39,271 nucleotides of DNA from a bacterium (lineage in GTDB: Bacteria; Bdellovibrionota_C; UBA2361; SZUA-149): the NCBI GenBank assembly GCA_030433295.1, contig JAUIMJ010000005.1:1-39271 (forward strand), written 5' to 3'. Numbering within the stretch: the first letter of the stretch is position 1; every line of letters begins with the position of its first letter. A program made the position numbers and the translations under genes. The notes below the pieces were generated by a model, which ran no database searches, was not told where the DNA came from, and worked only from the letters and a program-made list of their open reading frames with translations. This document shows, one piece after another, positions 7,952-18,382 of the stretch.

Positions 7952-10207
7952 CTATCCGGCATCCTCAGCAGGTAGCTCAACCTGATTCAACTTCTCAGGC
8001 TCTACTACGACAGTCTCTATTGATGTTGGTGGAGCACTGAGTACTTTCAGGGTGTATGTGCCCGGCAAGAGACTTAGAGCTTCCCCGTTGACCACCCCAG
8101 AGCTTACAAACTCGTCCTTTGCATTAAAGACCTCGTACGGAAGGCGAACTGCTTCTTCCAGACTTCTCTTTAGTTGCTCAGAATTCTGAGCATCGAAGTA
8201 GGTACCTTTTCCAATACGCGCCCAGGACCGAAAGGTTTCCTTCAGCATGTACTCATCGATGGCGAAACCAACAATATTCACGGTCGTATCAAATCCTGAC
8301 TCAGCTAGTTTCTTGATTGCGGCTTCCGGGTCCCCATCACAGGTCTCCTCACCATCTGTAACAAGAATCACGACACGCTTACCCTCGGCTGACTCCATAT
8401 CCTGCTGGACGAGTTCCAGAGATTTGGCAATCGGAGTCTTGGCGAAGTTCATCGCCACAACACCATCGACGGTCTTCCCTGCAGCACTTTTTTTAAGGGG
8501 CGAAAGGGGAATCTCGAGATCCGTTCTACAGGAGTCCTTCTCCTTATGTCCGAAAACCCGCATAGCAAAGGGCGTTCCTTCAGGTAAGGACCCTTTAATA
8601 AGCTGCTGCACAGCGTCCTTGGCGACTTCAATACGTCGCTGCTTTCCCTGATCTCGCTTCAGCATACTTCCTGAGGCATCTAAAATCAGAGCCACGTTCA
8701 TCTTCTGTGCACCCAGGCCAGAGCCCGACTCCCCGGCCTCTGCTGAGACAACACGAAGCGAACCGGGAACCTTTGAAGGCACAATGACGATAGGTCTGCT
8801 GGCCAAAACGCGTTTCTTGCCACCCGTGATATACCTCACTTCATAATTGCCTGCCTCTTTGGGAGTGTTGATCTTAAGTGTTTTCCCTCGTCTGACATAG
8901 GCGTAGCTCTCACTAATCGGTTCATCGTCTCCCGCTTTCTGGAGCGCAATGTAATCGTTGCTGTTCCCGGGCCCTTCCCAGCTAACGGAGATCACATCTC
9001 TGGCGGCGGCTTCGTCCGGCGCCGTTACGGATGCGCTCACCGGGACAACTTTTATCGGACGCGAGCCAAGCGTTAATCGTTTTTGACCGCTGAGGTAGCG
9101 GATTTCGTAGTCACCGGATTTCTCAGGTGCAGTTAATGAAAGCTTGTTGAGTTTGCGCGGCCCAAATTTCGATCGCGTGTAGGTGTAATCACCGTACTTC
9201 CCTTCATCCGCTCCGGCCTCCACGATAGTTATGAAATCTTTAGGATTGTCAGGGCCGGTCCACTCGACAAAAAACGAAGAGCCCTCAGAAACACTCTCAT
9301 CAGCTGTCAGAGTTGCATCGGTACCACCGACAACAATTGGTGCAGAGCCCAGCGTGTATCTTTTACTTCCGCTTAGATATCGAACTTCATACGAACCAGG
9401 AAGATCGGGAGCAGTTAACTTCATCGGCTTTCGCGGCGTTACGTTTCTCACGTATGCGTAGGGGCCGTATTTCCCCTCCTCAGCGTCGGCCTCAACTATG
9501 GTGATAAAATCCTTGTCATTGCGCGGTCCCTCAAAGCTCACCTCGAAGGAGGTACCAGCCTCGATCTTTTCCGGAACCGTAACTGATGCCAGGACCTCTT
9601 TCACGGTAATCGGCTCACTGGCTAGCGTCAGCCTTTCACCACCAAGAAGGTAACGCACCTCGTACTCGCCCGGATCCTCGGGTGCAACGAGTGTCATGCG
9701 CTTTTTCCGCGCATACTTGGGCTTTCCGGGGTAGGCATAGCCAGGGCCATAGGACCCCTCTTTTGCATCCTTCTTTACGATGGTGATGAAGTCTTTCGGA
9801 TATTCGGGGCCCTGCCACTCGATATCGACCTTGGCCCCCGCTACTACCTCCTTCGGCGCAGTGAGTTGAGCCGATACGGGAGTAACCTCTAAGTCAGCTT
9901 TGGCCATTGTGGGATATCCACGGTCCCCTTTGAGGAAACGCAATTCGTATTTACCCACCTGAGCAGGTACGCGAATTTTTATAGAAGTCTTTCCCTTTGT
10001 GTACACGTAACCGGGTGAGTATTTCCCCTCGCGTGCATCGGGCGAAACAATCGTCACAAAATCTTTTCCGCTCTCTTCCCCGCTTACCGTGACTTCGATT
10101 TCAGAAGCCGCAGGCGCGGAAGCTACGCTCTGGATACTTGATTCGGCATGTGCCAGCGAAGCACACAGCAGGAACGCCAGCAAAGTGAACAGAGATTCTC
10201 TTTTCAT
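7952..10207 (-). CDS. Secreted VWA-domain protein with five Ig-like repeats
   Basis: 751-aa exported protein. Residues 1-21 form a signal peptide ending AHA. Five tandem repeats of about 75-90 residues follow (about 36-108, 112-202, 206-293, 297-386, 390-476). Each contains a variant of GPxxxKDFITIV, an EGKYGxYAY-like strand and GxYEVRYLxGxKRxTL, consistent with beta-sandwich modules. A von Willebrand A domain spans about 503-690 with a complete MIDAS: DASGS (510-514), Thr591 and Asp618 in VTDGEE. A short beta-rich tail follows. VWA domains of this kind bind ligands through a divalent metal. A strong GGAGG lies 7 bases before ATG 10207. It is the first gene of the operon with the peptidase, ligase and glycosyltransferase. 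Likely a surface or periplasmic binding protein. Confidence 0.9.
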   Translation of the reverse strand: MKRESLFTLLAFLLCASLAHAESSIQSVASAPAASEIEVTVSGEESGKDFVTIVSPDAREGKYSPGYVYTKGKTSIKIRVPAQVGKYELRFLKGDRGYPTMAKADLEVTPVSAQLTAPKEVVAGAKVDIEWQGPEYPKDFITIVKKDAKEGSYGPGYAYPGKPKYARKKRMTLVAPEDPGEYEVRYLLGGERLTLASEPITVKEVLASVTVPEKIEAGTSFEVSFEGPRNDKDFITIVEADAEEGKYGPYAYVRNVTPRKPMKLTAPDLPGSYEVRYLSGSKRYTLGSAPIVVGGTDATLTADESVSEGSSFFVEWTGPDNPKDFITIVEAGADEGKYGDYTYTRSKFGPRKLNKLSLTAPEKSGDYEIRYLSGQKRLTLGSRPIKVVPVSASVTAPDEAAARDVISVSWEGPGNSNDYIALQKAGDDEPISESYAYVRRGKTLKINTPKEAGNYEVRYITGGKKRVLASRPIVIVPSKVPGSLRVVSAEAGESGSGLGAQKMNVALILDASGSMLKRDQGKQRRIEVAKDAVQQLIKGSLPEGTPFAMRVFGHKEKDSCRTDLEIPLSPLKKSAAGKTVDGVVAMNFAKTPIAKSLELVQQDMESAEGKRVVILVTDGEETCDGDPEAAIKKLAESGFDTTVNIVGFAIDEYMLKETFRSWARIGKGTYFDAQNSEQLKRSLEEAVRLPYEVFNAKDEFVSSGVVNGEALSLLPGTYTLKVLSAPPTSIETVVVEPEKLNQVELPAEDAG

Positions 10208-10936: not shown

Positions 10937-11800
10937 CTACGCAGCTTTTGTCTTTGAGGAAGACAACTCAGTTTTTATCACTCTGCGCCTGCTTCTTCTC
11001 TTGGTGCGTCGACCAGCGCTTCCGCGTTTGCGCTCTGCTGGCTTACTTTCCTTCTCCTCAGCAGATGTCTGTTGTTCCCCGATGATATTTCTCAGTCGGG
11101 AAAGGGCACTCTTTTTCACTCGAGAGATATGGCAACGGCTATAGCCAAGCGTCTTGGCAATATCGACCAGTGCCTGTTCACCACCGAATGAGCGAAGAAT
11201 AATTTCTTTCTCCAAATCATCAAGCTGACGAACCGCCTGTCGACACTCCTCTATCTTCTCCTTGCGAATCACCGCATTCTCGGGCGTCTCAATATCAGTC
11301 TGACCGAAAACCAGGTGCTCCGGAGCATTACCCCAAAGGGCCTCGCTACTCACATAGCGCCATTCCGAAGTATCCGTTCCTGCAGTCTGTCCGAACGCCA
11401 GGAAGACATTGCTCGCCTGTGCCGCACGGGCAACCGAGCGAACCAAATGACCACGCAGATGATAGAAGTAAAAGGTCATGAACGAAGCACCACGCTCCGG
11501 GGAATATCGCTTGGCAGCCTCACAAAGAGCCAGGTCGACAATACTATCAACCTCATCGCCCGACATGCGCACTCTCCATCGGCGAAGAATACTTCTGGCT
11601 AACTTTCTGCCATTTTCCCGGTGATCTAAAATAAGCGATTCGATGTTCGCTTCGTTCTCTTGTTGCTCCTCTTCGGAAACAACTCTCAACTCAGGAGTCT
11701 TAGCGCTCCTTTTTTTTGACTTTCTCTTGGCTGACTTTCTCGTTGCACTCTTTTTCTGAACCTTAGCTTTTTCCTTAACGCTAACCACTTCTTGCTCCAT
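10937..11800 (-). CDS. Sigma-70-like factor with lysine/arginine-rich tails
   Basis: 287-aa protein with a sigma-70 region 2 (about residues 50-125, including DEVDSIVDLALCEAAKRYSP and ASFMTFYFYHLRGHLVRSVA) and a region 4 helix-turn-helix (about 190-240; LDDLEKEIILRSFGGEQALV, then YSRCHISRVKKSALSRLR). Region 3 is poorly conserved. Unusually, both ends are basic and low-complexity: KSATRKSAKRKSKKRSAK near the N terminus and RKRGSAGRRTKRRSRRR near the C terminus, like histone-type tails that contact DNA. ATG 11800 is chosen, with GGAG about 10 bases upstream. ATG 11824 and GTG 11872 are in frame and possible. It is divergent from the membrane-anchored sigma gene and close to type III export genes, so it may control them. 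Confidence 0.75.
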   Translation of the reverse strand: MEQEVVSVKEKAKVQKKSATRKSAKRKSKKRSAKTPELRVVSEEEQQENEANIESLILDHRENGRKLARSILRRWRVRMSGDEVDSIVDLALCEAAKRYSPERGASFMTFYFYHLRGHLVRSVARAAQASNVFLAFGQTAGTDTSEWRYVSSEALWGNAPEHLVFGQTDIETPENAVIRKEKIEECRQAVRQLDDLEKEIILRSFGGEQALVDIAKTLGYSRCHISRVKKSALSRLRNIIGEQQTSAEEKESKPAERKRGSAGRRTKRRSRRRVIKTELSSSKTKAA

Positions 11801-12020
11801 GCTTCCCCAGCTCCGCTTAAACATAACCGCACAGATCCGTTGCCTCGGATCGGCATATTCCCTGTCAACCACGCCTTTCGCCGCGGTATGCGCCCTAGTA
11901 ACTCAGGCGCCCAATGTGATGTATTTGACCAACAACACTCACTATTCAGCCCCCCGAAGCATTACACTTCTGCAAAAAATCTAAGTATCTATAAACACTA
12001 GCTTTTAATAGAGGGCCGCT
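11801..12020. promoter_or_regulatory. Divergent promoter region between two sigma genes
   Basis: The space between divergent sigma genes (10937-11800 and 12227-13132) must hold promoters for both. The segment near 11970-12000 is AT-rich (AAAAAATCTAAG, then TATCTATAAACACTAG), but no pair of -35/-10 boxes at standard spacing could be assigned with confidence. Confidence 0.35.
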
Positions 12021-12212
12021 GTGGGCCTTACAGGAAGGCAGGCGGTAGAAAAGGGAGAAATCGCAGGAAGTAAGTATCAAAACTCATTGCGTATTTTGCT
12101 GATTAACGCTCAACTATGGCCGATTAAAGTTTTTCAAGAGATCATGCCGAAGTCTCTAGAAACGGATGTCTTCCCGTCCGAAAGGAGAAGGGGGGGCGAA
12201 AAAGCAAGCTAA
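12021..12212 (+). CDS. Possible 63-aa protein upstream of membrane-anchored sigma gene
   Basis: Frame from GTG 12021 with GAGGG 5 bases upstream, ending 14 bases before the ATG of the sigma-like gene. The product is basic and mixed in character (MGLTGRQAVEKGEIAGSKYQ at the N terminus, ERRRGGEKAS at the C terminus) with one moderately hydrophobic stretch (LRILLINAQLWPI). The position and ribosome site fit an operon partner. However, it matches no known family and contains a FliA-type promoter-like sequence, so the stretch could simply be the 5' leader. Confidence 0.3.
   Translation: MGLTGRQAVEKGEIAGSKYQNSLRILLINAQLWPIKVFQEIMPKSLETDVFPSERRRGGEKAS
12125..12153 (+). promoter_or_regulatory. FliA (sigma-28)-type promoter-like sequence
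   Basis: TAAAGTTT at 12125-12132 matches the sigma-28 -35 element exactly. GCCGAAGT at 12146-12153 matches the first five bases of the -10 element GCCGATAA. The spacer is 13 bases, whereas 11 is usual. It lies about 75 bases before the ATG of the membrane-anchored sigma gene, and a FliA-like sigma gene is in the same island. Suggestive only. Confidence 0.25.
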
Positions 12213-12226
12213 GGAAAAAGATCTGC

Positions 12227-13132
12227 ATGACGACCAGCGAAGAAACCACCGCTGAACACACTCCAGGTAGCGAGGAGTTTGTTGCTAAACTCGTCGAGGA
12301 AAACATGGGTTGGGCGACGAGTATCGCAAAATCCGTTGCTCGGGCCTGGAATATGGACTGGCAGCTGGATGGTCTCGACGGCGGAGCCTATGAAGGACTC
12401 CTGTTTTGTGCCAGACGTTTTGACCCCGCCCGAGGAGTTCCATTTCGCGGGTATGCGCGACGCCGTATTCACGAGGCGTGCACCGAGGAAGCAAGGAAAT
12501 CAAAGTCCTGGCAGCGCGGCACGGGCGCAAACACTCAAGTCGAGCAGGATGCCCGAGAATTGAGTGCCAAGTTATTTAATGTTTTCCCTGAACTTCGCAG
12601 CGGATATCTGCCGAGCAATGACTCAAGTGGTGGCGACCCCGTTCGCAGCTCCGTTCGTCAATTGCTGACCAGCGCGAGCCTGATGGCTGCCTTTGAAGAA
12701 AGCGGCAGCGAAAATCCAGAAATTGCGTTCGAATACAAACAACTCATCGGAGTCCTCGCGGAACTAGAACCCGTGCATCAGGAAATTCTTTACGCGGTGT
12801 ACTACAAAGGCCAGTCGATGAGAAAACTGGCGGAGGAATGGAAGATCGACGACCTCTCGGTCATCCGTGAACACAAAGAAATACTGCGATTCTTATCTGC
12901 AAGAATAGAAGCTCCAAATTCAAGGGCGGGATTGCGAAAGCTTAAAATCAGACGAGGACTTCGAACCGTTGCGCAGCAGCTTAGGAAAGCTCAGCATGAA
13001 GGGTCATTTAGTAAGTTCCTTTCTGCTGCCATTATTCTTCTCATCCTTACTGCCTTATTCTCAGTTACCGCTCCGCTCAATCAGCATATGGCAGCAAACT
13101 CAACAGAAACCTCGCGAGGCATTCTATGGTAA
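12227..13132 (+). CDS. Membrane-anchored sigma-70-like protein
   Basis: 301-aa protein. Residues about 20-95 match sigma-70 region 2 (GGAYEGLLFCARRFDPARGV, then FRGYARRRIHEA). Residues about 172-225 form a region 4-like helix-turn-helix (LEPVHQEILYAVYYKGQSMR, then IREHKEILRFL). The linker between them is not recognisable as region 3. The C terminus has one strong transmembrane helix (about 265-284, FLSAAIILLILTALF) after a basic stretch, predicting a cytoplasmic sigma body and a 17-residue periplasmic tail. Sigma factors are normally soluble, so this tether is notable. AAGGA lies 11 bases before ATG 12227. The stop overlaps the next gene (ATGGTAA), indicating coupling. Confidence 0.75.
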   Translation: MTTSEETTAEHTPGSEEFVAKLVEENMGWATSIAKSVARAWNMDWQLDGLDGGAYEGLLFCARRFDPARGVPFRGYARRRIHEACTEEARKSKSWQRGTGANTQVEQDARELSAKLFNVFPELRSGYLPSNDSSGGDPVRSSVRQLLTSASLMAAFEESGSENPEIAFEYKQLIGVLAELEPVHQEILYAVYYKGQSMRKLAEEWKIDDLSVIREHKEILRFLSARIEAPNSRAGLRKLKIRRGLRTVAQQLRKAQHEGSFSKFLSAAIILLILTALFSVTAPLNQHMAANSTETSRGILW

Positions 13133-13446
13133 AGAAAATCCAAGGCAAGAAAACCGGACGCACCAGCGGCACCTCACCGGTGCAGGCGACAAAAACCGTA
13201 GAGAGCTCCAAAGTTGGCCAGGTCGATCAGGTAAAGGGCGGTGAGGCCACTGACCGTGCAGGGAGTGTGGGCACGGCCGGCACACCAATTACCCCGGAAC
13301 TTCGCGAACAATTGTTCCAGATGATCGATGAAGAAGCGGACAAACTCTTTGGTGATGATAATGAGGCCGCTGAGAAGAGAAAGAAGACGGTCAAGGGTGC
13401 AGTTAAAATGGCACTGGAGTCAGGGGTTCTACCGGAAGAGGAATAA
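13126..13446 (+). CDS. Small protein coupled to the membrane-anchored sigma
   Basis: 106-aa protein whose ATG lies 7 bases inside the end of the sigma-like gene. The first 50 residues are low-complexity and rich in Thr, Ser, Gly, Val and Lys, probably disordered. The second half (PITPELREQLFQMIDEEADK, then KKTVKGAVKMALESG) is predicted helical. This disordered-then-helical plan resembles the FlgM anti-sigma factor and some type III export substrates or chaperones, but there is no sequence match I can claim. By position it could be a regulator or ligand of the upstream sigma-like protein. It is convergent with the TPR gene, 27 bases away. Confidence 0.7.
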   Translation: MVKKIQGKKTGRTSGTSPVQATKTVESSKVGQVDQVKGGEATDRAGSVGTAGTPITPELREQLFQMIDEEADKLFGDDNEAAEKRKKTVKGAVKMALESGVLPEEE

Positions 13447-13473
13447 AGAAATCCTCTGAGGAGCCAATGGATT

Positions 13474-13890
13474 TTATCCTGCCACTCGACAACGCAGAAC
13501 GAGTGCCTCGAACAGGCGTTGCTGATCGGGATCGATCATCTGCAAACGATCCGGTTCATTTGATATCTCTGCCAGAATAGATTGCGCCCGGGACATCTCT
13601 TTCATCGCAACAAAGGCTGCGCAAAGTCCCAACTTAGCCAGAACCGGGTAATTTCCTATCTGCAGAGCCTGACGAAAATGAGTGGTTGCTTCCTGATACA
13701 ATCCTCGCTCCAACTTTACGAGGCCAAGCCCAATCCGACATGGGGTTCGCTCGCCGTCAACCACAGCAAGTCCGGAAAAAATCCGCTCTGCAGGCGCAAA
13801 GTATCCCATCTCGAAATAGAGGCGACCCAGTTCAAAAATCGCAACCAACTCCTCATTTGAGTATTCACTTACCACGAGACCATTCCCCAA
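13474..13890 (-). CDS. TPR protein, possible type III secretion chaperone
   Basis: 138-aa all-helical protein with about three tetratricopeptide-like repeats: ELGRLYFEMGYFAPAERIFS, GLVKLERGLYQEATTHFRQA and GLCAAFVAMKEMSRAQSILA. Its size and repeat plan resemble LcrH/SycD- or SctG-type type III secretion chaperones, and it is the last gene of the sctRSTU operon, supporting that idea. The frame opens at TTG 13890, 6 bases after the upstream stop. GTG 13875 is an alternative with GGGGA 8 bases upstream. Confidence 0.75.
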   Translation of the reverse strand: MGNGLVVSEYSNEELVAIFELGRLYFEMGYFAPAERIFSGLAVVDGERTPCRIGLGLVKLERGLYQEATTHFRQALQIGNYPVLAKLGLCAAFVAMKEMSRAQSILAEISNEPDRLQMIDPDQQRLFEALVLRCRVAG

Positions 13891-13896
13891 ATAGGA

Positions 13897-14211
13897 TCAC
13901 TCTTTATCCAGGCCCACAGTCAGCCACTGCACTACCTGAGAAAGCATTGACTCCTCGGCCGCACGCCTATACTGCGCCTCTGAATCAGCCAGATCGGCGA
14001 CATTCTCAGCACTCTGCAAATCGAGCAGTCGACGCTCAAGCTGATCTCCCAATCGGGCCAGATCAGAAACCTCACCAGCCGAAGGAAGCAGAACGGCGAG
14101 GGGCATAACCGGTAACCTGCTTCGCTTCGCTGCTGCCTCATTTCGCGCAGAGCTTCGAGCTGGCGGGGCCGTCCCTTGTCGAGCCGCTGGTATATTTTCT
14201 TCGTCACTCAT
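13897..14211 (-). CDS. Unrecognised 104-aa protein in type III export operon
   Basis: 104-aa protein with a Pro/Ala/Arg-rich N-terminal third (probably disordered, about residues 1-33) and a helical remainder (EVSDLARLGDQLERRLLDLQ, then SEAQYRRAAEESMLSQVVQW). No family was recognised. Its size and mostly helical C-terminal half would suit a small type III needle, rod or gatekeeper-associated protein, but no diagnostic motif is present. It lies 7 bases after the 42-codon frame and 6 bases before the TPR gene, so it belongs to the operon. Confidence 0.65.
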   Translation of the reverse strand: MSDEENIPAARQGTAPPARSSARNEAAAKRSRLPVMPLAVLLPSAGEVSDLARLGDQLERRLLDLQSAENVADLADSEAQYRRAAEESMLSQVVQWLTVGLDKE

Positions 14212-14218
14212 CGTATTT

Positions 14219-14347
14219 TCATAGCATTAATGGGCGTGTCAAAAAACTATCGTTTTTCCTCAGGCCCGAAAGGGTTCGCTTCAGCAACGCAAGTTGAACG
14301 CTTTGCTCAAGCCCTTTGTCGGCGTTCGGAACAATGAGAAGACTCAT
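14219..14347 (-). CDS. Possible 42-aa protein after truncated sctU
   Basis: Frame from ATG 14347, 8 bases after the sctU stop, ending 7 bases before the next gene. It begins MSLLIVPNADKGLEQSVQLA and ends LTRPLML. GGAG lies only one base before the ATG, which is poor spacing. It occupies the place where the SctU cytoplasmic domain would be expected, but lacks NPTH and the rest of that domain. It could be a tiny operon gene or non-coding. Confidence 0.4.
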   Translation of the reverse strand: MSLLIVPNADKGLEQSVQLALLKRTLSGLRKNDSFLTRPLML

Positions 14348-14355
14348 TCTCCGAC

Positions 14356-15138
14356 CTATGACTCCTCGAGAAGCTCCCGCCTGCTGGCATCGAAATCGCC
14401 ACTGGTTTCCATCTCTCGATACTCCTCTTCCAACTCACTGCGCGTCATACGCTGCGCACGATGAAAAGAGAAGTAATCAATCAGATAACAGCCCAGTCCC
14501 AGAAAAAAGAGCATGAACAGCAGGCTCATGAAGAAAAAGCGGGCCCAGGACGTGACAAACAGCAGCGGGGTCTCGAATGCCTTTTCTAACGCCACTCTAC
14601 TGATATCATCACTCAGCCCCAGGGCCGACAGGGATCCTACGACCTGCTGATTGTAGTCGTAGAACAGCTGGGTCAGAAACCAAGAAAGAAACAAGAGAAC
14701 CACGGCAATCAGAAGGATACTGCGACCTGCCCTTTTCAGTCCTGCTACCGGCGCAAAAGAAAAGCTCGGGGCCATTCTCCCAAGACTTGGAACTGCCTGC
14801 TTAACTACGATTAGAAAACGCGTCTGCAGGAGTCCGAAGAGTGCAACTGCCAGTGCCGTGCATCCGCAGATAGCGAGCACACCGACGGCAAGAAACATCT
14901 GAACCCGCTCGAACAACTTGGGTAGATCAGGACTGGCTACAGAACGCTTTCGCACAAGCTCTGCCGCAAATAACTCAAAATCCGGCAGACAAACAGCAAG
15001 AGCAATCGACACCCCCATCCCGACTCCAATAAAGGCAGCAAAGAGCAGAACCTCTTTGCTTTGCGGCACGATGCCCTCTGAGCGAAGACGCTCAAGCTTC
15101 AGTTCCGTAGCCGGAAATCTTTTTGCTTCATCGCTCAT
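14356..15138 (-). CDS. sctU: SctU/FlhB-type export protein lacking the cytoplasmic domain
   Basis: 260-aa homologue of SctU/FlhB. The N-terminal KRFPATELKLERLRSEGIVP and four hydrophobic segments fit the family's membrane part. The cytoplasmic linker (RAQRMTRSELEEEYREMETS) matches the normal sequence just after the fourth helix. The protein then ends at ...RRELLEES, about 10-15 residues before the position of the NPTH autocleavage site. Family members are usually about 340-370 aa and carry a roughly 90-residue C-terminal domain that switches substrate class. None of the three minus-strand frames after the stop encodes NPTH. It overlaps sctT by 11 bases. Function as part of the export gate is likely; substrate switching must differ or be supplied elsewhere. 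Confidence 0.85.
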   Translation of the reverse strand: MSDEAKRFPATELKLERLRSEGIVPQSKEVLLFAAFIGVGMGVSIALAVCLPDFELFAAELVRKRSVASPDLPKLFERVQMFLAVGVLAICGCTALAVALFGLLQTRFLIVVKQAVPSLGRMAPSFSFAPVAGLKRAGRSILLIAVVLLFLSWFLTQLFYDYNQQVVGSLSALGLSDDISRVALEKAFETPLLFVTSWARFFFMSLLFMLFFLGLGCYLIDYFSFHRAQRMTRSELEEEYREMETSGDFDASRRELLEES

Positions 15139-15970
15139 GTACGTGGAAGAGATTCGTTATGGTTTTCGATGCCTGGGGACCATTTGATGAGACGAAGAAT
15201 GCCCCGAGCTGCTCACTGAAAGGATACAGACTCAACACTAAAAACAAACTGAGCAAGGGTATTCGCAGGCCCTTAAAAAACCAATGGGCTTCTAGTTCTC
15301 GAAAAACTCTGTAGGAAAAAATACAGCTCAGATCACAAACAAAAAACAAGAGTGCAAGTGGTAGGAACAGATAGGTAGCAAGCATCAAAGCCGTAGCGCC
15401 AGCTCTCAATACGACTTCGCATACCGCAACAAATCCTCCTGCGGGAAGCTCCGTGAATCCCAGAGGAAGACTGGCGTAGGAGTCGGCAACCTGAGCAAAA
15501 ACAGTTGCGTATGCTCCTGAGCCTAGAATCAGCGAAAAACAAATCAGCACGGGAAGGACGGACAATTGTGGGTGGGGTCTGATTTCGACTCGAGTAAGGG
15601 GAAACCCCGTTCTCTGTATAATGGATGCGCTGAGCATGTGCCCAAAGATCGAGGCCAGCAATAGCGAAGCGCCAAATGAAATTCCAAGTAGTACACCAAT
15701 TCCCGACTCAAGGAGTATCGCTGTATAGGGAAGAAAAGAACCCCGAACAATTTCGCTTACACTAGAATCCAGACCAACCAGCAGACCTCCGAATCCAATA
15801 TCAATGGTTTTGAAAGGGGTGCACATCAGAGCCGCTGACCACACCGCAACCTTCGCGATACCGGGTAGCGAGCCGCGCGGCACGAGAAAGAAAGCAATAG
15901 TCAGGCCGATGGCACGAAAGCCGGAAGCGGATACTTCATGGAGGGTCGCTGCATCCAGAGTCCAATCCAT
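15128..15970 (-). CDS. sctT: SctT/FliR-type export-gate protein
   Basis: 280-aa polytopic membrane protein of the SctT/FliR family, the single-copy subunit that closes the SctR5-SctS4-SctT1 export pore in the inner membrane. About seven hydrophobic segments are visible with family-type loops, such as ESGIGVLLGISFGASLLLAS and GATALMLATYLFLPLALLFF. ATG 15970 is preferred, with GGTGA 5 bases upstream. GTG 15979, three codons earlier, overlaps the sctS stop (GTGA) and is an alternative. Order sctR-S-T-U. Confidence 0.88.
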   Translation of the reverse strand: MDWTLDAATLHEVSASGFRAIGLTIAFFLVPRGSLPGIAKVAVWSAALMCTPFKTIDIGFGGLLVGLDSSVSEIVRGSFLPYTAILLESGIGVLLGISFGASLLLASIFGHMLSASIIQRTGFPLTRVEIRPHPQLSVLPVLICFSLILGSGAYATVFAQVADSYASLPLGFTELPAGGFVAVCEVVLRAGATALMLATYLFLPLALLFFVCDLSCIFSYRVFRELEAHWFFKGLRIPLLSLFLVLSLYPFSEQLGAFFVSSNGPQASKTITNLFHVHER

Positions 15971-15975
15971 AAGAA

Positions 15976-16230
15976 TCACCGATAGAAGTCAGCGCCGCCC
16001 CAGACGCGAACGGTAAAATCCAGGATTTCCGAAGACAAATAGCCCGAGCTTATCCAGAGCAACAAGGCAAGACCCGCGGCTCGACCGAGAAACCCTATCG
16101 AGGGATCGTCTATCTGAGTTACGACTCGGAGGATCGCCGTAACACCTCCGCCGAGTGCAATGCTGCCAAGCAGGAGAAATCCGAGGTACGCAACCAACTG
16201 GAGTGCTGAAATCACTAAGGAAGGAGTCAT
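15976..16230 (-). CDS. sctS: SctS/FliQ-type export-gate protein
   Basis: 84-aa protein with two membrane helices (LVAYLGFLLLGSIALGGGVT and LGRAAGLALLLWISSGYL) separated by a short polar loop containing TQIDD, the plan of SctS/FliQ (usually 85-90 aa), which forms the lower ring of the export pore. GGAG lies 7 bases before ATG 16230. It directly precedes sctT. Confidence 0.88.
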   Translation of the reverse strand: MTPSLVISALQLVAYLGFLLLGSIALGGGVTAILRVVTQIDDPSIGFLGRAAGLALLLWISSGYLSSEILDFTVRVWGGADFYR

Positions 16231-16315
16231 GGAAATCTCCGAAATTATCCGTTTTTACTGCCCCCGGCCGCACATCTCGGTTCGAGCAAGGTGGAATCCA
16301 AAAATACCCGAGACC

Positions 16316-17110
16316 TCACGAGTACGATGCGACCAAATTCGTAGTAATGATTGCCCAACCATCGACCATGACAAATAGCAGTACCTTGAATGGAAACGAT
16401 ACCAGCGCGCTGTTGAGGTGCTCTGAGCCCAGTGCAGCCAACACACTGGCAACCAGTAAATCGATAACGAGAAACGGAAGGAATAAACTAAGTCCTGTCG
16501 CGAAGGCCTCTTTTAATTCAGATACCATGAACGCCGGAGCAAGCACGCGCCACGAATCTTCTGCCTCTTGTACCTCCGTACCCTTGCCACGATTGGCTAT
16601 CTCAAGGAATCGCTTGCGATCCTCTTCCTCCGCATGCCGCTCAACAAACTGCTTCCACTCGAGAAGGCCCGCATTAAGCGCTCTGGCACGCAGCTGATCA
16701 TCGACCACACCGCTCCTCAATACACGGTCCATACTTTCGCAGGACTGGGAAATAGTTGGCCACATAACAAAAAACGATAAGACGAGGGCTAAGCCCCCCG
16801 TAATAAGTGTAGATGGCAGGCTATCAACGCCAAAGCCGATGCGCACAATCCCTAAGACGGTGGCGAGCTTGATGTAGGAGCTCAACACCAGAACCAGAAG
16901 GAACAAAAAGAAAACAGAGAATGCAGACAGACCAAGTTGTCCGATAGTTGAGATGGGATCCACGCGTACGAATCTCAGGCTATGATTTATGTTATCCAGA
17001 TAAGGAGGAGGATAGTACGGGCACACCAATTCTATCAAGAAGGATCGAATACCAGAGAAAGAAATCCCCAAGGTATCCTTCCGAGAGCGAGTACGTCGCT
17101 TCGGATTCAT
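16316..17110 (-). CDS. sctR: SctR/FliP-type export-gate protein
   Basis: 264-aa membrane protein of the SctR/FliP family, which forms the pentameric core of the type III export pore. Matches include SSYIKLATVLGIVRIGFGVD, the SFFVMWPTISQ segment, a polar mid-region of about 80 residues, and the C-terminal family block LFLPFLVIDLLVASVLAALG followed by SFPFKVLLFVMVDGW. It is slightly longer than usual because of a polar N-terminal extension (MNPKRRTRSRKD). ATG 17110 has only a weak ribosome site, and no later ATG precedes the conserved region. First gene of the export operon, 85 bases ahead of sctS. Confidence 0.9.
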   Translation of the reverse strand: MNPKRRTRSRKDTLGISFSGIRSFLIELVCPYYPPPYLDNINHSLRFVRVDPISTIGQLGLSAFSVFFLFLLVLVLSSYIKLATVLGIVRIGFGVDSLPSTLITGGLALVLSFFVMWPTISQSCESMDRVLRSGVVDDQLRARALNAGLLEWKQFVERHAEEEDRKRFLEIANRGKGTEVQEAEDSWRVLAPAFMVSELKEAFATGLSLFLPFLVIDLLVASVLAALGSEHLNSALVSFPFKVLLFVMVDGWAIITTNLVASYS

Positions 17111-17361
17111 CCTGATAAAAAGACAAGTCCGGTCGAGGTCCAGGGATCGCTTCCTGGCTGAACCCGCTCACATCGGGTGGTATCTGCCACAGTGGCGCGG
17201 CTCTCTTGAGGCCTTTTCGAGAAGAAAACGCACTCGAAGCAAAAATAAAATCTCATTGTTATCAGCCGCTTAGCTTAAAGTGACAAAAATGTTACCTCCA
17301 GCACTAAAACATAGCGAAATCCCCTGAATCTTTGTGGCTACGTACATATTCTAAATGGGGT
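17111..17361. promoter_or_regulatory. Divergent promoter region of sctR and small membrane gene
   Basis: 250 bases between sctR (minus) and the small membrane protein/FliA-like operon (plus). On the minus strand GCTGATAA resembles a sigma-28 -10 box, but no TAAA lies at the right distance. No firm promoter was assigned. Confidence 0.3.
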
Positions 17362-17598
17362 ATGGGCAAAGAAACTACCGTTTACAGCTCCTATGAAGGG
17401 CTTCACCGTTTTCTCTCGGGGATAACGGTTCTTTGCGTAGCGATCGTGCTCGTTGGGTCCCTCCTGAGCGGAACCTCGGCAACATGGACCGCCATATACG
17501 CAGGTTTGGTTTACTTTGGGTTGTTGTTAGCGACTAAGCTCATTATTCGACTCTGGGCTACCTGGGAAATGGTCAAAACAGGGTCGGGAAGAAGCTAG
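17362..17598 (+). CDS. Small two-helix membrane protein upstream of FliA-like sigma
   Basis: 78-aa protein with two predicted membrane helices (GITVLCVAIVLVGSLLSG and AIYAGLVYFGLLLATKLIIR) and a short polar tail ending MVKTGSGRS. No family was recognised. The frame opens at TTG 17332, but ATG 17362 is a more usual start. It ends 34 bases before the FliA-like sigma gene, which has a strong ribosome site, so both are likely in one transcript divergent from sctRSTU. Confidence 0.65.
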   Translation: MGKETTVYSSYEGLHRFLSGITVLCVAIVLVGSLLSGTSATWTAIYAGLVYFGLLLATKLIIRLWATWEMVKTGSGRS

Positions 17599-17632
17599 TA
17601 CACGATAAGATTTTTTTAAGGAGCCTAAGCTG

Positions 17633-18382
17633 GTGAAAGCGAAGAAAAAGCCAAGCGTCGAATCTTTCCGCACGATAGGAGAGGATGAGCGTGAGGAGTT
17701 AATTCGTAGTTTCCTCCCCCTGGTCAAAAGGGTAGTGCACAGGCTTGCCGGACGTCTACCTGCTGAGGTCGACGTAAAAGAGATGCTTAACTCCGGAATC
17801 ATCGGATTGGTTGATGCTCTCGAAAAGTACGATCCCCGTCATGAAACAAATTTTTCCACCTACGCTCAGTTTCGTATTCGCGGAACGATCCTCGACAGTT
17901 TTCGAGTACAGGATTGGGTTCCCCGTTCCCTGCGCCACAAGGCACATAAACTCGAGAATACGTATCAAAAACTTGAACAGGAGCTGGGACGCCCTGCTGA
18001 GGAAACAGAAGTTGCAACCGAACTCGGCGTAGATCTGAACACTCTTCACAAAATGCTGGGAGAGGTTACCGGCGTCGTCATGCTCAGCCTTGAAGAGCTG
18101 GGGTTTGGCCATGGTGAGGAACGCTTCAGAGCAGATGAAACACTTCCGACTACAAAGCCTGATCCTCTTTCGAGTTTGCTCGACGGGGAACGGGTCGAGA
18201 TAGTAGCCAGAGCGTTGGACCGACTGCCTGAGAAGGAGCGTCTGGTGATTACCCTGTATTTCTACGAGGAGCTAAACCTCAAAGAAATCGGTGAAATCAT
18301 AGGCGTAACCGAATCACGTGCTTCTCAAATTCGCTCAAGAGCACTGTTGCGATTACGTACCTACCTGAAACGCGCCCTTTAG
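17633..18382 (+). CDS. FliA/WhiG-type sigma factor
   Basis: 249-aa sigma-70 factor with the FliA/WhiG plan. Region 2 is at about 20-95 (EELIRSFLPLVKRVVHRLAG, then FSTYAQFRIRGTILDSFRVQ, then DWVPRS, a FliA hallmark). Region 3 is at about 100-165 (LENTYQKLEQELGRPAEETE). Region 4 is at about 195-245 (LPEKERLVITLYFYEELNLK, then SRASQIRSRALLRLR). FliA directs late flagellar genes in most bacteria, but here the neighbours are sctRSTU. Start GTG 17633 with AAGGAG 9 bases upstream. It is convergent with the O-antigen ligase gene, 26 bases away. Confidence 0.88.
   Translation: MKAKKKPSVESFRTIGEDEREELIRSFLPLVKRVVHRLAGRLPAEVDVKEMLNSGIIGLVDALEKYDPRHETNFSTYAQFRIRGTILDSFRVQDWVPRSLRHKAHKLENTYQKLEQELGRPAEETEVATELGVDLNTLHKMLGEVTGVVMLSLEELGFGHGEERFRADETLPTTKPDPLSSLLDGERVEIVARALDRLPEKERLVITLYFYEELNLKEIGEIIGVTESRASQIRSRALLRLRTYLKRAL

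What the first reader, a model, noticed from the sequence alone, without database searches (positions are those of the whole stretch)
10937..18382. Export-gate operon embedded between three sigma-70-like genes
sctRSTU are flanked by a basic-tailed sigma, a membrane-anchored sigma and a FliA/WhiG-like sigma, with small proteins of unknown family among them. Three sigma-like genes within 7.5 kb of one export-gate operon is unusual. No ATPase, SctV, ring or filament gene is present in the window. This may be a compact or distributed type III system with its own transcription cascade and unrecognised substrates or chaperones.
Basis: partly seen in the sequence, partly recalled or inferred. Interest (0 to 1): 0.75.

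Follow-up and report, generated by a model that had tools for sequence, protein, structure and literature searches.

The report
Pilus-linked needleless type III system
The window carries one half of a stripped-down bacterial protein exporter that, across a whole class of uncultured bacteria, is encoded together with a Tad pilus and its own pair of transcription (sigma) factors, much like the Tad-plus-needleless-type-III machinery Myxococcus uses to kill prey by contact; the third sigma gene next to it is simply the flagellar one.

Summary
In detail: sctRSTU (14356-17110, -) and three genuine sigma-70 genes lie at the stated coordinates. Relatives show what it is. In the same class of uncultured bacteria (46 genomes held) the genes belong to one non-flagellar type III cluster: [PP2C - FHA - kinase - Flp/Tad pilus genes - sctV - kinase/HEAT - FHA - FHA - sctJ - SctO-like - sctQ] - sctRSTU - small protein - TPR chaperone-like gene, beside the sigma pair sig1/sig2. 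The other half lies on contig C78 of the same genome. The SctV tree puts it outside the flagellum. No secretin, needle or ATPase gene is in the cluster, and its SctU lacks the self-cleaving domain. sig2 is single-copy in 41/46 class genomes and 0/337 others; it is linked to this cluster in 23 genomes of 11 families, with sig1 beside it. The third sigma (17633-18382) is flagellar FliA and not part of the system. Closest known kind: the Myxococcus needle-less T3SS* that works with the Kil/Tad pilus. This is a variant: pilus and T3SS genes are contiguous, a dedicated sigma pair is present, the ATPase is elsewhere or absent. Function in contact-dependent attack is inferred, not shown.

The parts
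10937..11872 (-). sig1: sigma-70 family protein with lysine/arginine-rich N- and C-terminal tails
   Evidence: Pfam r4 9.8e-9, r2 0.026; NCBIfam sigma70-ECF 50 bits; next to sig2 in 23 of 26 class loci, the other three at contig ends
12227..13132 (+). sig2: sigma-70 family protein (regions 2 and 4) with a C-terminal membrane helix in this order of the class
   Evidence: single-copy orthologue in 41 of 46 class genomes and 0 of 337 others; AlphaFold pLDDT 82, all 50 listed PDB fold matches are sigma factors, best E 1.6e-3; membrane helix missing in the other orders
13126..13446 (+). 106-aa partner of sig2: disordered N-terminus plus two C-terminal helices; start overlaps the sig2 stop by 7 bases
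   Evidence: follows sig2 at -80 to +56 bases in 21 class loci; no Pfam/NCBIfam/PDB relative; not FlgM by hhalign; model pLDDT 57
13474..13890 (-). TPR protein resembling type III secretion chaperones
   Evidence: TPR_19 4e-9; LcrH_SycD 5e-8, SctY 5e-6, CdsG 7e-6, all below curated cut-offs; fused to the next gene in L127 and L188
13897..14211 (-). small helical protein, always beside (sometimes fused to) the TPR gene; possible co-chaperone
   Evidence: 18 orthologues in class loci, natural fusions; no family match
14356..15138 (-). sctU: membrane part only; lacks the C-terminal self-cleaving (NPTH) domain
   Evidence: Pfam matches profile 3-235 of 335; all 18 SctU of this type are 163-311 aa without NPTH (the shortest ones may be cut by contig ends); the genome's own FlhB (L001) has it
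15128..15979 (-). sctT export-gate subunit
   Evidence: Bac_export_1 0.0016; position in the conserved operon
15976..16230 (-). sctS export-gate subunit
   Evidence: Bac_export_3 1.7e-6; SctS 24.7 bits vs FliQ 23.1
16316..17110 (-). sctR export-gate subunit
   Evidence: FliP 3e-49; SctR subfamily 172 bits vs FliP 153; 44-55% identical orthologues next to sctQ/sctJ/sctV in relatives
17633..18382 (+). flagellar sigma factor FliA (neighbour, NOT part of the system)
   Evidence: FliA_WhiG 245 bits, above cut-off; near-universal in the class and close to flagellar fliP in many relatives

Best explanation
The window holds the export gate (SctRSTU), a chaperone pair and the regulator genes of a needle-less, non-flagellar type III system that is encoded as one unit with a Tad/Flp pilus. 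Proposed working: the inner-membrane gate (SctRSTUV in an SctJ lipoprotein ring, with an SctQ ring and an FHA-domain membrane protein in place of SctD) moves substrates into the periplasm. TPR-type chaperones hold these substrates beforehand. The Tad pilus of the same cluster takes the place of the missing needle and outer-membrane pore. Two Ser/Thr kinases, a PP2C phosphatase and three FHA proteins switch assembly on after contact, as the PpkA/PppA/Fha pathway does for the type VI system. The sig1/sig2 pair directs transcription of these genes; in this order sig2 is tethered to the membrane and translated together with a 106-aa partner. The likely use is contact-dependent attack on other cells. 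Shown here: gene content, order, conservation, non-flagellar ancestry, linkage of pilus, gate and sigma pair. Inferred: export into the periplasm, hand-over to the pilus, control by phosphorylation, promoter targets of the sigma pair, and attack as the purpose.
For: One contiguous order Tad - sctV - kinase/HEAT - FHA2 - FHA1 - sctJ - sctQ - sctRSTU - small - TPR in relatives, with the Tad genes directly beside sctV in G000, G004, G010 and G045. Both Flp pilins of the window's genome lie in that cluster on contig C78. SctV tree: this type 100/99, flagellar 100/100, canonical non-flagellar plus a second in-class system 89/84. SctJ is YscJ-type. SctQ orthologue in 42/46 class genomes and 0/337 others; sig2 in 41/46 and 0/337. 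sig1/sig2 pair within about 15 kb of cluster genes in 23 of 41 genomes from 11 families. TPR protein matches T3S chaperone models. The functional precedent is in M. xanthus: needle-less T3SS* plus Kil/Tad at the prey contact site, with LcrH-like chaperones and FHA proteins (PMC10433427, PMC12075869, PMC8460266).
Against: No expression, interaction or phenotype data exist. In the window's own genome the halves lie on different contigs; C78 ends inside sctJ, and SctQ is not found there, which fits an assembly gap but is not proven. In G002 of the same family they are on two long contigs, so the cluster can split. G006 keeps sig1/sig2 and the 106-aa gene but shows no SctQ of this type, so the sigma pair may have other targets. 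No shared promoter motif was found. Phylogenetic grouping with the Myxococcus system could not be tested. No Tad secretin lies in the fetched cluster; the genome's two secretins are on C11 and C288.
Confidence: 0.7

Rival explanations
1. The sigma pair is a general stress or developmental regulator that happens to sit beside the type III/Tad cluster by old synteny; the secretion system itself is transcribed by housekeeping sigma.
For: sig1/sig2 lie far from the cluster in some well-assembled genomes (for example G004: contigs C95 and C51; G018, G005, G009, G016); G006 keeps the pair without this SctQ; no shared promoter motif.
Against: sig2 and SctQ occur together in nearly every sufficiently complete class genome and nowhere else (0 of 337), and are neighbours in 11 families.
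Confidence: 0.25
2. A degenerate type III relic: a gate without ATPase, secretin, needle or SctU cleavage domain that no longer exports anything.
For: Missing parts are consistent: no ATPase, secretin or needle in the cluster, SctU without NPTH in 18 of 18, SctD-like protein without a periplasmic domain in all 11 sequences.
Against: Orthologues are kept in 42 of 46 genomes with the same order and open reading frames; the losses are shared by all members, as expected of a remodelled machine. M. xanthus T3SS*, with similar gaps, is functional (PMC12075869).
Confidence: 0.08
3. The gate serves the flagellum or the second non-flagellar system of the same genome as a spare or shared export gate.
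For: The only T3S ATPase in many class genomes is the flagellar FliI, so some sharing of the motor is likely.
Against: Each of the three systems has its own SctV and SctR; SctV of this type is a separate clade; FliP and FlhA of the flagellum sit near fliA in their own operon in relatives.
Confidence: 0.06
4. All three sigma genes form a cascade for the type III system, as first proposed.
For: Three sigma genes within 7.5 kb in this one genome.
Against: The third is FliA: above the FliA/WhiG cut-off, 63-91% identical to orthologues near flagellar fliP in many class genomes and not beside this cluster in the relatives examined; the genome has its FlgM in a flagellar operon (contig C377).
Confidence: 0.03

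Closest known systems
Myxococcus xanthus needle-less T3SS* (MXAN_2434-2464) with the Kil/Tad apparatus (MXAN_3102-3108, MXAN_4648-4661)
   Same: Non-flagellar gate SctRSTUV, SctJ, SctQ, LcrH-type TPR chaperone, no secretin/needle/translocon in the cluster, work (there shown, here implied) with a Tad pilus and FHA proteins (PMC10433427, PMC12075869)
   Different: Here Tad and T3SS genes are contiguous, with kinases and a phosphatase in the cluster; no SctN/SctL in the cluster; SctU lacks the cleavage domain; a conserved sigma pair accompanies it. The two T3SS* papers searched for the word mention no sigma gene. Sequence grouping with the Myxococcus proteins not tested
'Myxo' long and short non-flagellar T3SS of Abby and Rocha 2012
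   Same: Secretin- and needle-less, outside both flagellar and classical injectisome clades; several systems per genome
   Different: Those loci include the ATPase and inner rod (PMC3459982); here neither was found in the cluster
Classical injectisome (SctC secretin, SctF needle, translocon)
   Same: SctV, SctJ, SctQ, SctR-U core, TPR chaperone likeness
   Different: No secretin, needle or translocon; SctD-like protein is a tail-anchored FHA protein with no periplasmic ring domain
Type VI secretion threonine-phosphorylation pathway (PpkA/PppA/Fha)
   Same: Ser/Thr kinase, PP2C phosphatase and FHA proteins encoded with a contact-dependent machine (cluster genes)
   Different: No type VI genes; an analogy of control logic only

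Membership tests
[quoted passage not shown]
   SctV tree: flagellar clade 100/100, this type separate 100/99; hrcV 499 vs FlhA 446 bits, SctR 172 vs FliP 153 bits
[quoted passage not shown]
   YscJ 109 bits vs FliF 19; about 300-aa SctJ in the cluster
Needle-less T3SS* (Myxococcus type) | No secretin, needle or translocon genes in the cluster | tested here: met
   Pfam scans of the G004 cluster; the genome's two secretins lie elsewhere. Very divergent needle proteins cannot be excluded
Needle-less T3SS* (Myxococcus type) | SctQ C-ring protein and LcrH-like chaperone | tested here: met
   FliMN_C 2.3e-12; LcrH_SycD best model for the TPR protein but below cut-off
Needle-less T3SS* (Myxococcus type) | SctN/SctL ATPase complex in the cluster | tested here: not met
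   No ATPase in the cluster in any fetched locus. An SctL+SctN pair lies on another contig in the window's order (C356); in the other orders mostly only one T3S ATPase is found, and it is FliI beside fliF where examined
Needle-less T3SS* (Myxococcus type) | SctD inner-ring protein | tested here: inconclusive
   FHA2 matches Yop-YscD_cpl (2.6e-14) but has only a C-terminal membrane helix and no periplasmic domain
Needle-less T3SS* (Myxococcus type) | Functional partnership with a Tad/Kil pilus in predation | not testable with these tools
   Gene linkage with Tad shown; function needs experiments
Needle-less T3SS* (Myxococcus type) | Groups with the Myxococcus proteins in a tree | not tested
   No Myxococcus T3SS* sequence was obtainable with the tools left
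Flagellar export apparatus | FliPQR/FlhBA beside hook, rod or motor genes | tested here: not met
   The genome's flagellar genes are on C114, C283, C315, C377; none beside this cluster except fliA in the window
FlgM-type exported anti-sigma (for 13126-13446) | FlgM family sequence match | tested here: not met
   hhalign probability 0.4%, no HMM hit; true FlgM of this genome is on C377
FliA flagellar sigma (for 17633-18382) | Family score above cut-off and linkage to flagellar genes in relatives | tested here: met
   245 bits vs cut-off 190; linkage in many relatives

The most novel reading that the evidence does not exclude
A hybrid machine in which a type III gate feeds substrates to a Tad pilus that replaces the needle, controlled by its own membrane-tethered sigma factor whose co-translated 106-aa disordered partner works as an exported anti-sigma, a flagellum-like assembly checkpoint evolved independently of FlgM.
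Probability: 0.12. Interest if true: 0.85.

Novelty: new variant of a known kind. Interest (0 to 1): 0.62.

Why it matters
In Myxococcus, why a needle-less type III system and a Tad pilus act together at the prey contact site is open, because their genes are far apart and no route to the outside is known. Here, in another large uncultured lineage, the two are encoded as one unit together with kinase, phosphatase and FHA genes and a conserved sigma pair. That is independent genetic support that gate and pilus form one machine, and it gives compact marker genes (SctQ-type, sig2) for finding it. It also shows that the self-cleaving domain of SctU and an in-cluster ATPase can be absent across a whole class, which bears on what a type III gate minimally needs.

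Tried and rejected
(1) A FlgM-like identity for the 106-aa sig2 partner: rejected by hhalign and HMM against 20 FlgM of the class (a first attempt used a wrong FlgM set and is void). (2) Its fold: low-confidence model, so no fold search was made. (3) A promoter motif shared by sig1, sig2 and sct/Tad upstream regions: dyad and k-mer enrichment in 98 upstream regions against 237 gave nothing convincing. (4) The 76-aa protein between sctJ and the SctO-like gene as a mini-FliG: no Pfam or PDB match. (5) Solved-structure search with the TPR profile returns generic TPR proteins and does not discriminate. (6) The genome-contig scan with sctR returned mostly ordinary flagellar FliP and no close relative, so the lineage could not be named. 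(8) The literature search for this combination found only Myxococcus and Bradymonas work. (9) The three-sigma cascade: rejected, see rivals.

Full report
1. The observation. The window is contig C352 of a 4.45 Mb draft genome (86% complete, 425 contigs). Pfam confirms sctR, sctS and sctU and three sigma-70 proteins, with sctT below threshold. The operon sctR-S-T-U runs on the minus strand with two further genes (13897-14211 and a TPR protein, 13474-13890). sig2 and a 106-aa gene (13126-13446) run towards it; sig1 is divergent from sig2.

2. The rest of the system. The genome has three FlhA/SctV genes (C114, C78, C77), three FliP/SctR (window, C249, C315) and three FliF/SctJ (C283, C78, C77). 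C114/C283/C315/C377 carry an ordinary flagellum. In relatives of the same class the window's genes are contiguous with the C78 type: sctV - kinase/HEAT - FHA2 - FHA1 - sctJ - 76-aa - FliJ/SctO-like - SctQ - sctR - sctS - sctT - sctU - small - TPR (loci L124, L125, L126, L127). Upstream of sctV the same strand carries PP2C, an FHA-type protein, a PknB-type kinase, a TadZ-like AAA protein, CpaB/RcpC, TadA, TadB and TadC, in G000, G004, G010 and, for the TadA-to-sctV part, also G045 from another order. Both Flp pilins of the window's genome are in this cluster on C78. C77 and C249 carry a second, different non-flagellar system with its own sigma gene and, in relatives, a split SctU.

3. Flagellar or not. 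The SctV tree (28 sequences, IQ-TREE) separates flagellar FlhA (100/100), this type (100/99) and a group of canonical SctV plus the second in-class system (89/84). SctJ is the YscJ lipoprotein type.

4. The sigma genes. sig2 is single-copy in 41 of 46 class genomes and absent from 337 other genomes. The SctQ of this system shows the same distribution (42 of 46, 0 of 337). Most of the missing cases are incomplete genomes; G006 (91% complete) has sig1/sig2 but no such SctQ. sig1 stands beside sig2 in 23 of 26 loci, the other three being cut by contig ends. The pair lies within about 15 kb of cluster genes in 23 of 41 genomes from 11 families, usually next to the TPR gene. A rough binomial estimate gives 2e-9 at family level, which ignores common descent. 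The membrane helix of sig2 occurs in the window's order only. The sig2 model (pLDDT 82) matches only sigma factors among the 50 PDB entries listed. The third sigma is FliA.

5. Small genes. The TPR protein is closest to T3S chaperones (LcrH/SycD, SctY, CdsG), below cut-offs. Gene 13897-14211 is fused to it in two genomes, so the two probably act together. The 106-aa gene is tightly coupled to sig2 (gap -80 to +56 bases in 21 loci), with a disordered start and two helices. It is not FlgM and matches no family. A sigma partner or an exported substrate are both open.

6. What is missing. No ATPase, secretin or needle gene is in the cluster. SctU stops before the self-cleaving domain in 18 of 18 sequences. 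The SctD-like FHA2 ends in one membrane helix. The window's order has an SctL/SctN pair at another locus (C356); in other orders most genomes have one T3S ATPase, and where examined it is FliI beside fliF.

7. How it may work. By analogy with M. xanthus, where a needle-less T3SS* and the Kil/Tad pilus meet at the prey contact site, the pilus being needed for killing and T3SS* for lysis (PMC12075869, PMC10433427), the gate would deliver chaperoned substrates to the periplasm and the pilus would carry them out. Kinases, phosphatase and FHA proteins would switch assembly on at contact, as suggested for Kil by its many FHA proteins (PMC8460266). These steps are inference.

8. Comparison and novelty. 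It works like the Myxococcus pair but is not filed as a member: one feature given for that system (SctN/SctL in the cluster) was tested and not met, and a tree with Myxococcus was not possible. The new points are the contiguous Tad-T3SS cluster, the conserved sigma pair, and the SctU without a cleavage domain. The organism's lineage could not be named, because genome handles are anonymous.

Noticed in passing
G000:C77 (L006:12635-18689) and G000:C249 (L132:4910-7690): A second non-flagellar type III system with its own sigma gene, SctJ, two small SctI/SctF-sized genes, SctV and TPR; in relatives (L139, L140, L141) its SctU is split and the FlhB-type C-terminal domain is a separate 97-116 aa gene beyond a hybrid histidine kinase-like gene.
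   Followed up: partly
46 class genomes: Most genomes of this class encode three type III export apparatuses (flagellum plus two non-flagellar systems), an unusually constant triple.
   Followed up: partly
G006:C27 (L187:7752-10221): sig1, sig2 and the 106-aa gene are kept although no SctQ of the cluster type is found in this 91% complete genome.
   Followed up: no
L127:12154-12879 and L188:6573-7211: The small gene and the TPR chaperone-like gene are fused into one reading frame.
   Followed up: partly
window 7952-10207: 751-aa protein with a signal-like start, about five similar repeats and a von Willebrand A-like region, followed by a protease-like gene and an ATP-grasp-like gene (read from the sequence only).
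   Followed up: no
window 17332-17598: Small membrane-protein reading frame directly upstream of fliA.
   Followed up: no
L124:7979-8209 and orthologues: 76-aa protein between sctJ and the SctO-like gene, conserved (16 copies found) and without any family match; it sits where fliG lies in flagellar operons.
   Followed up: partly
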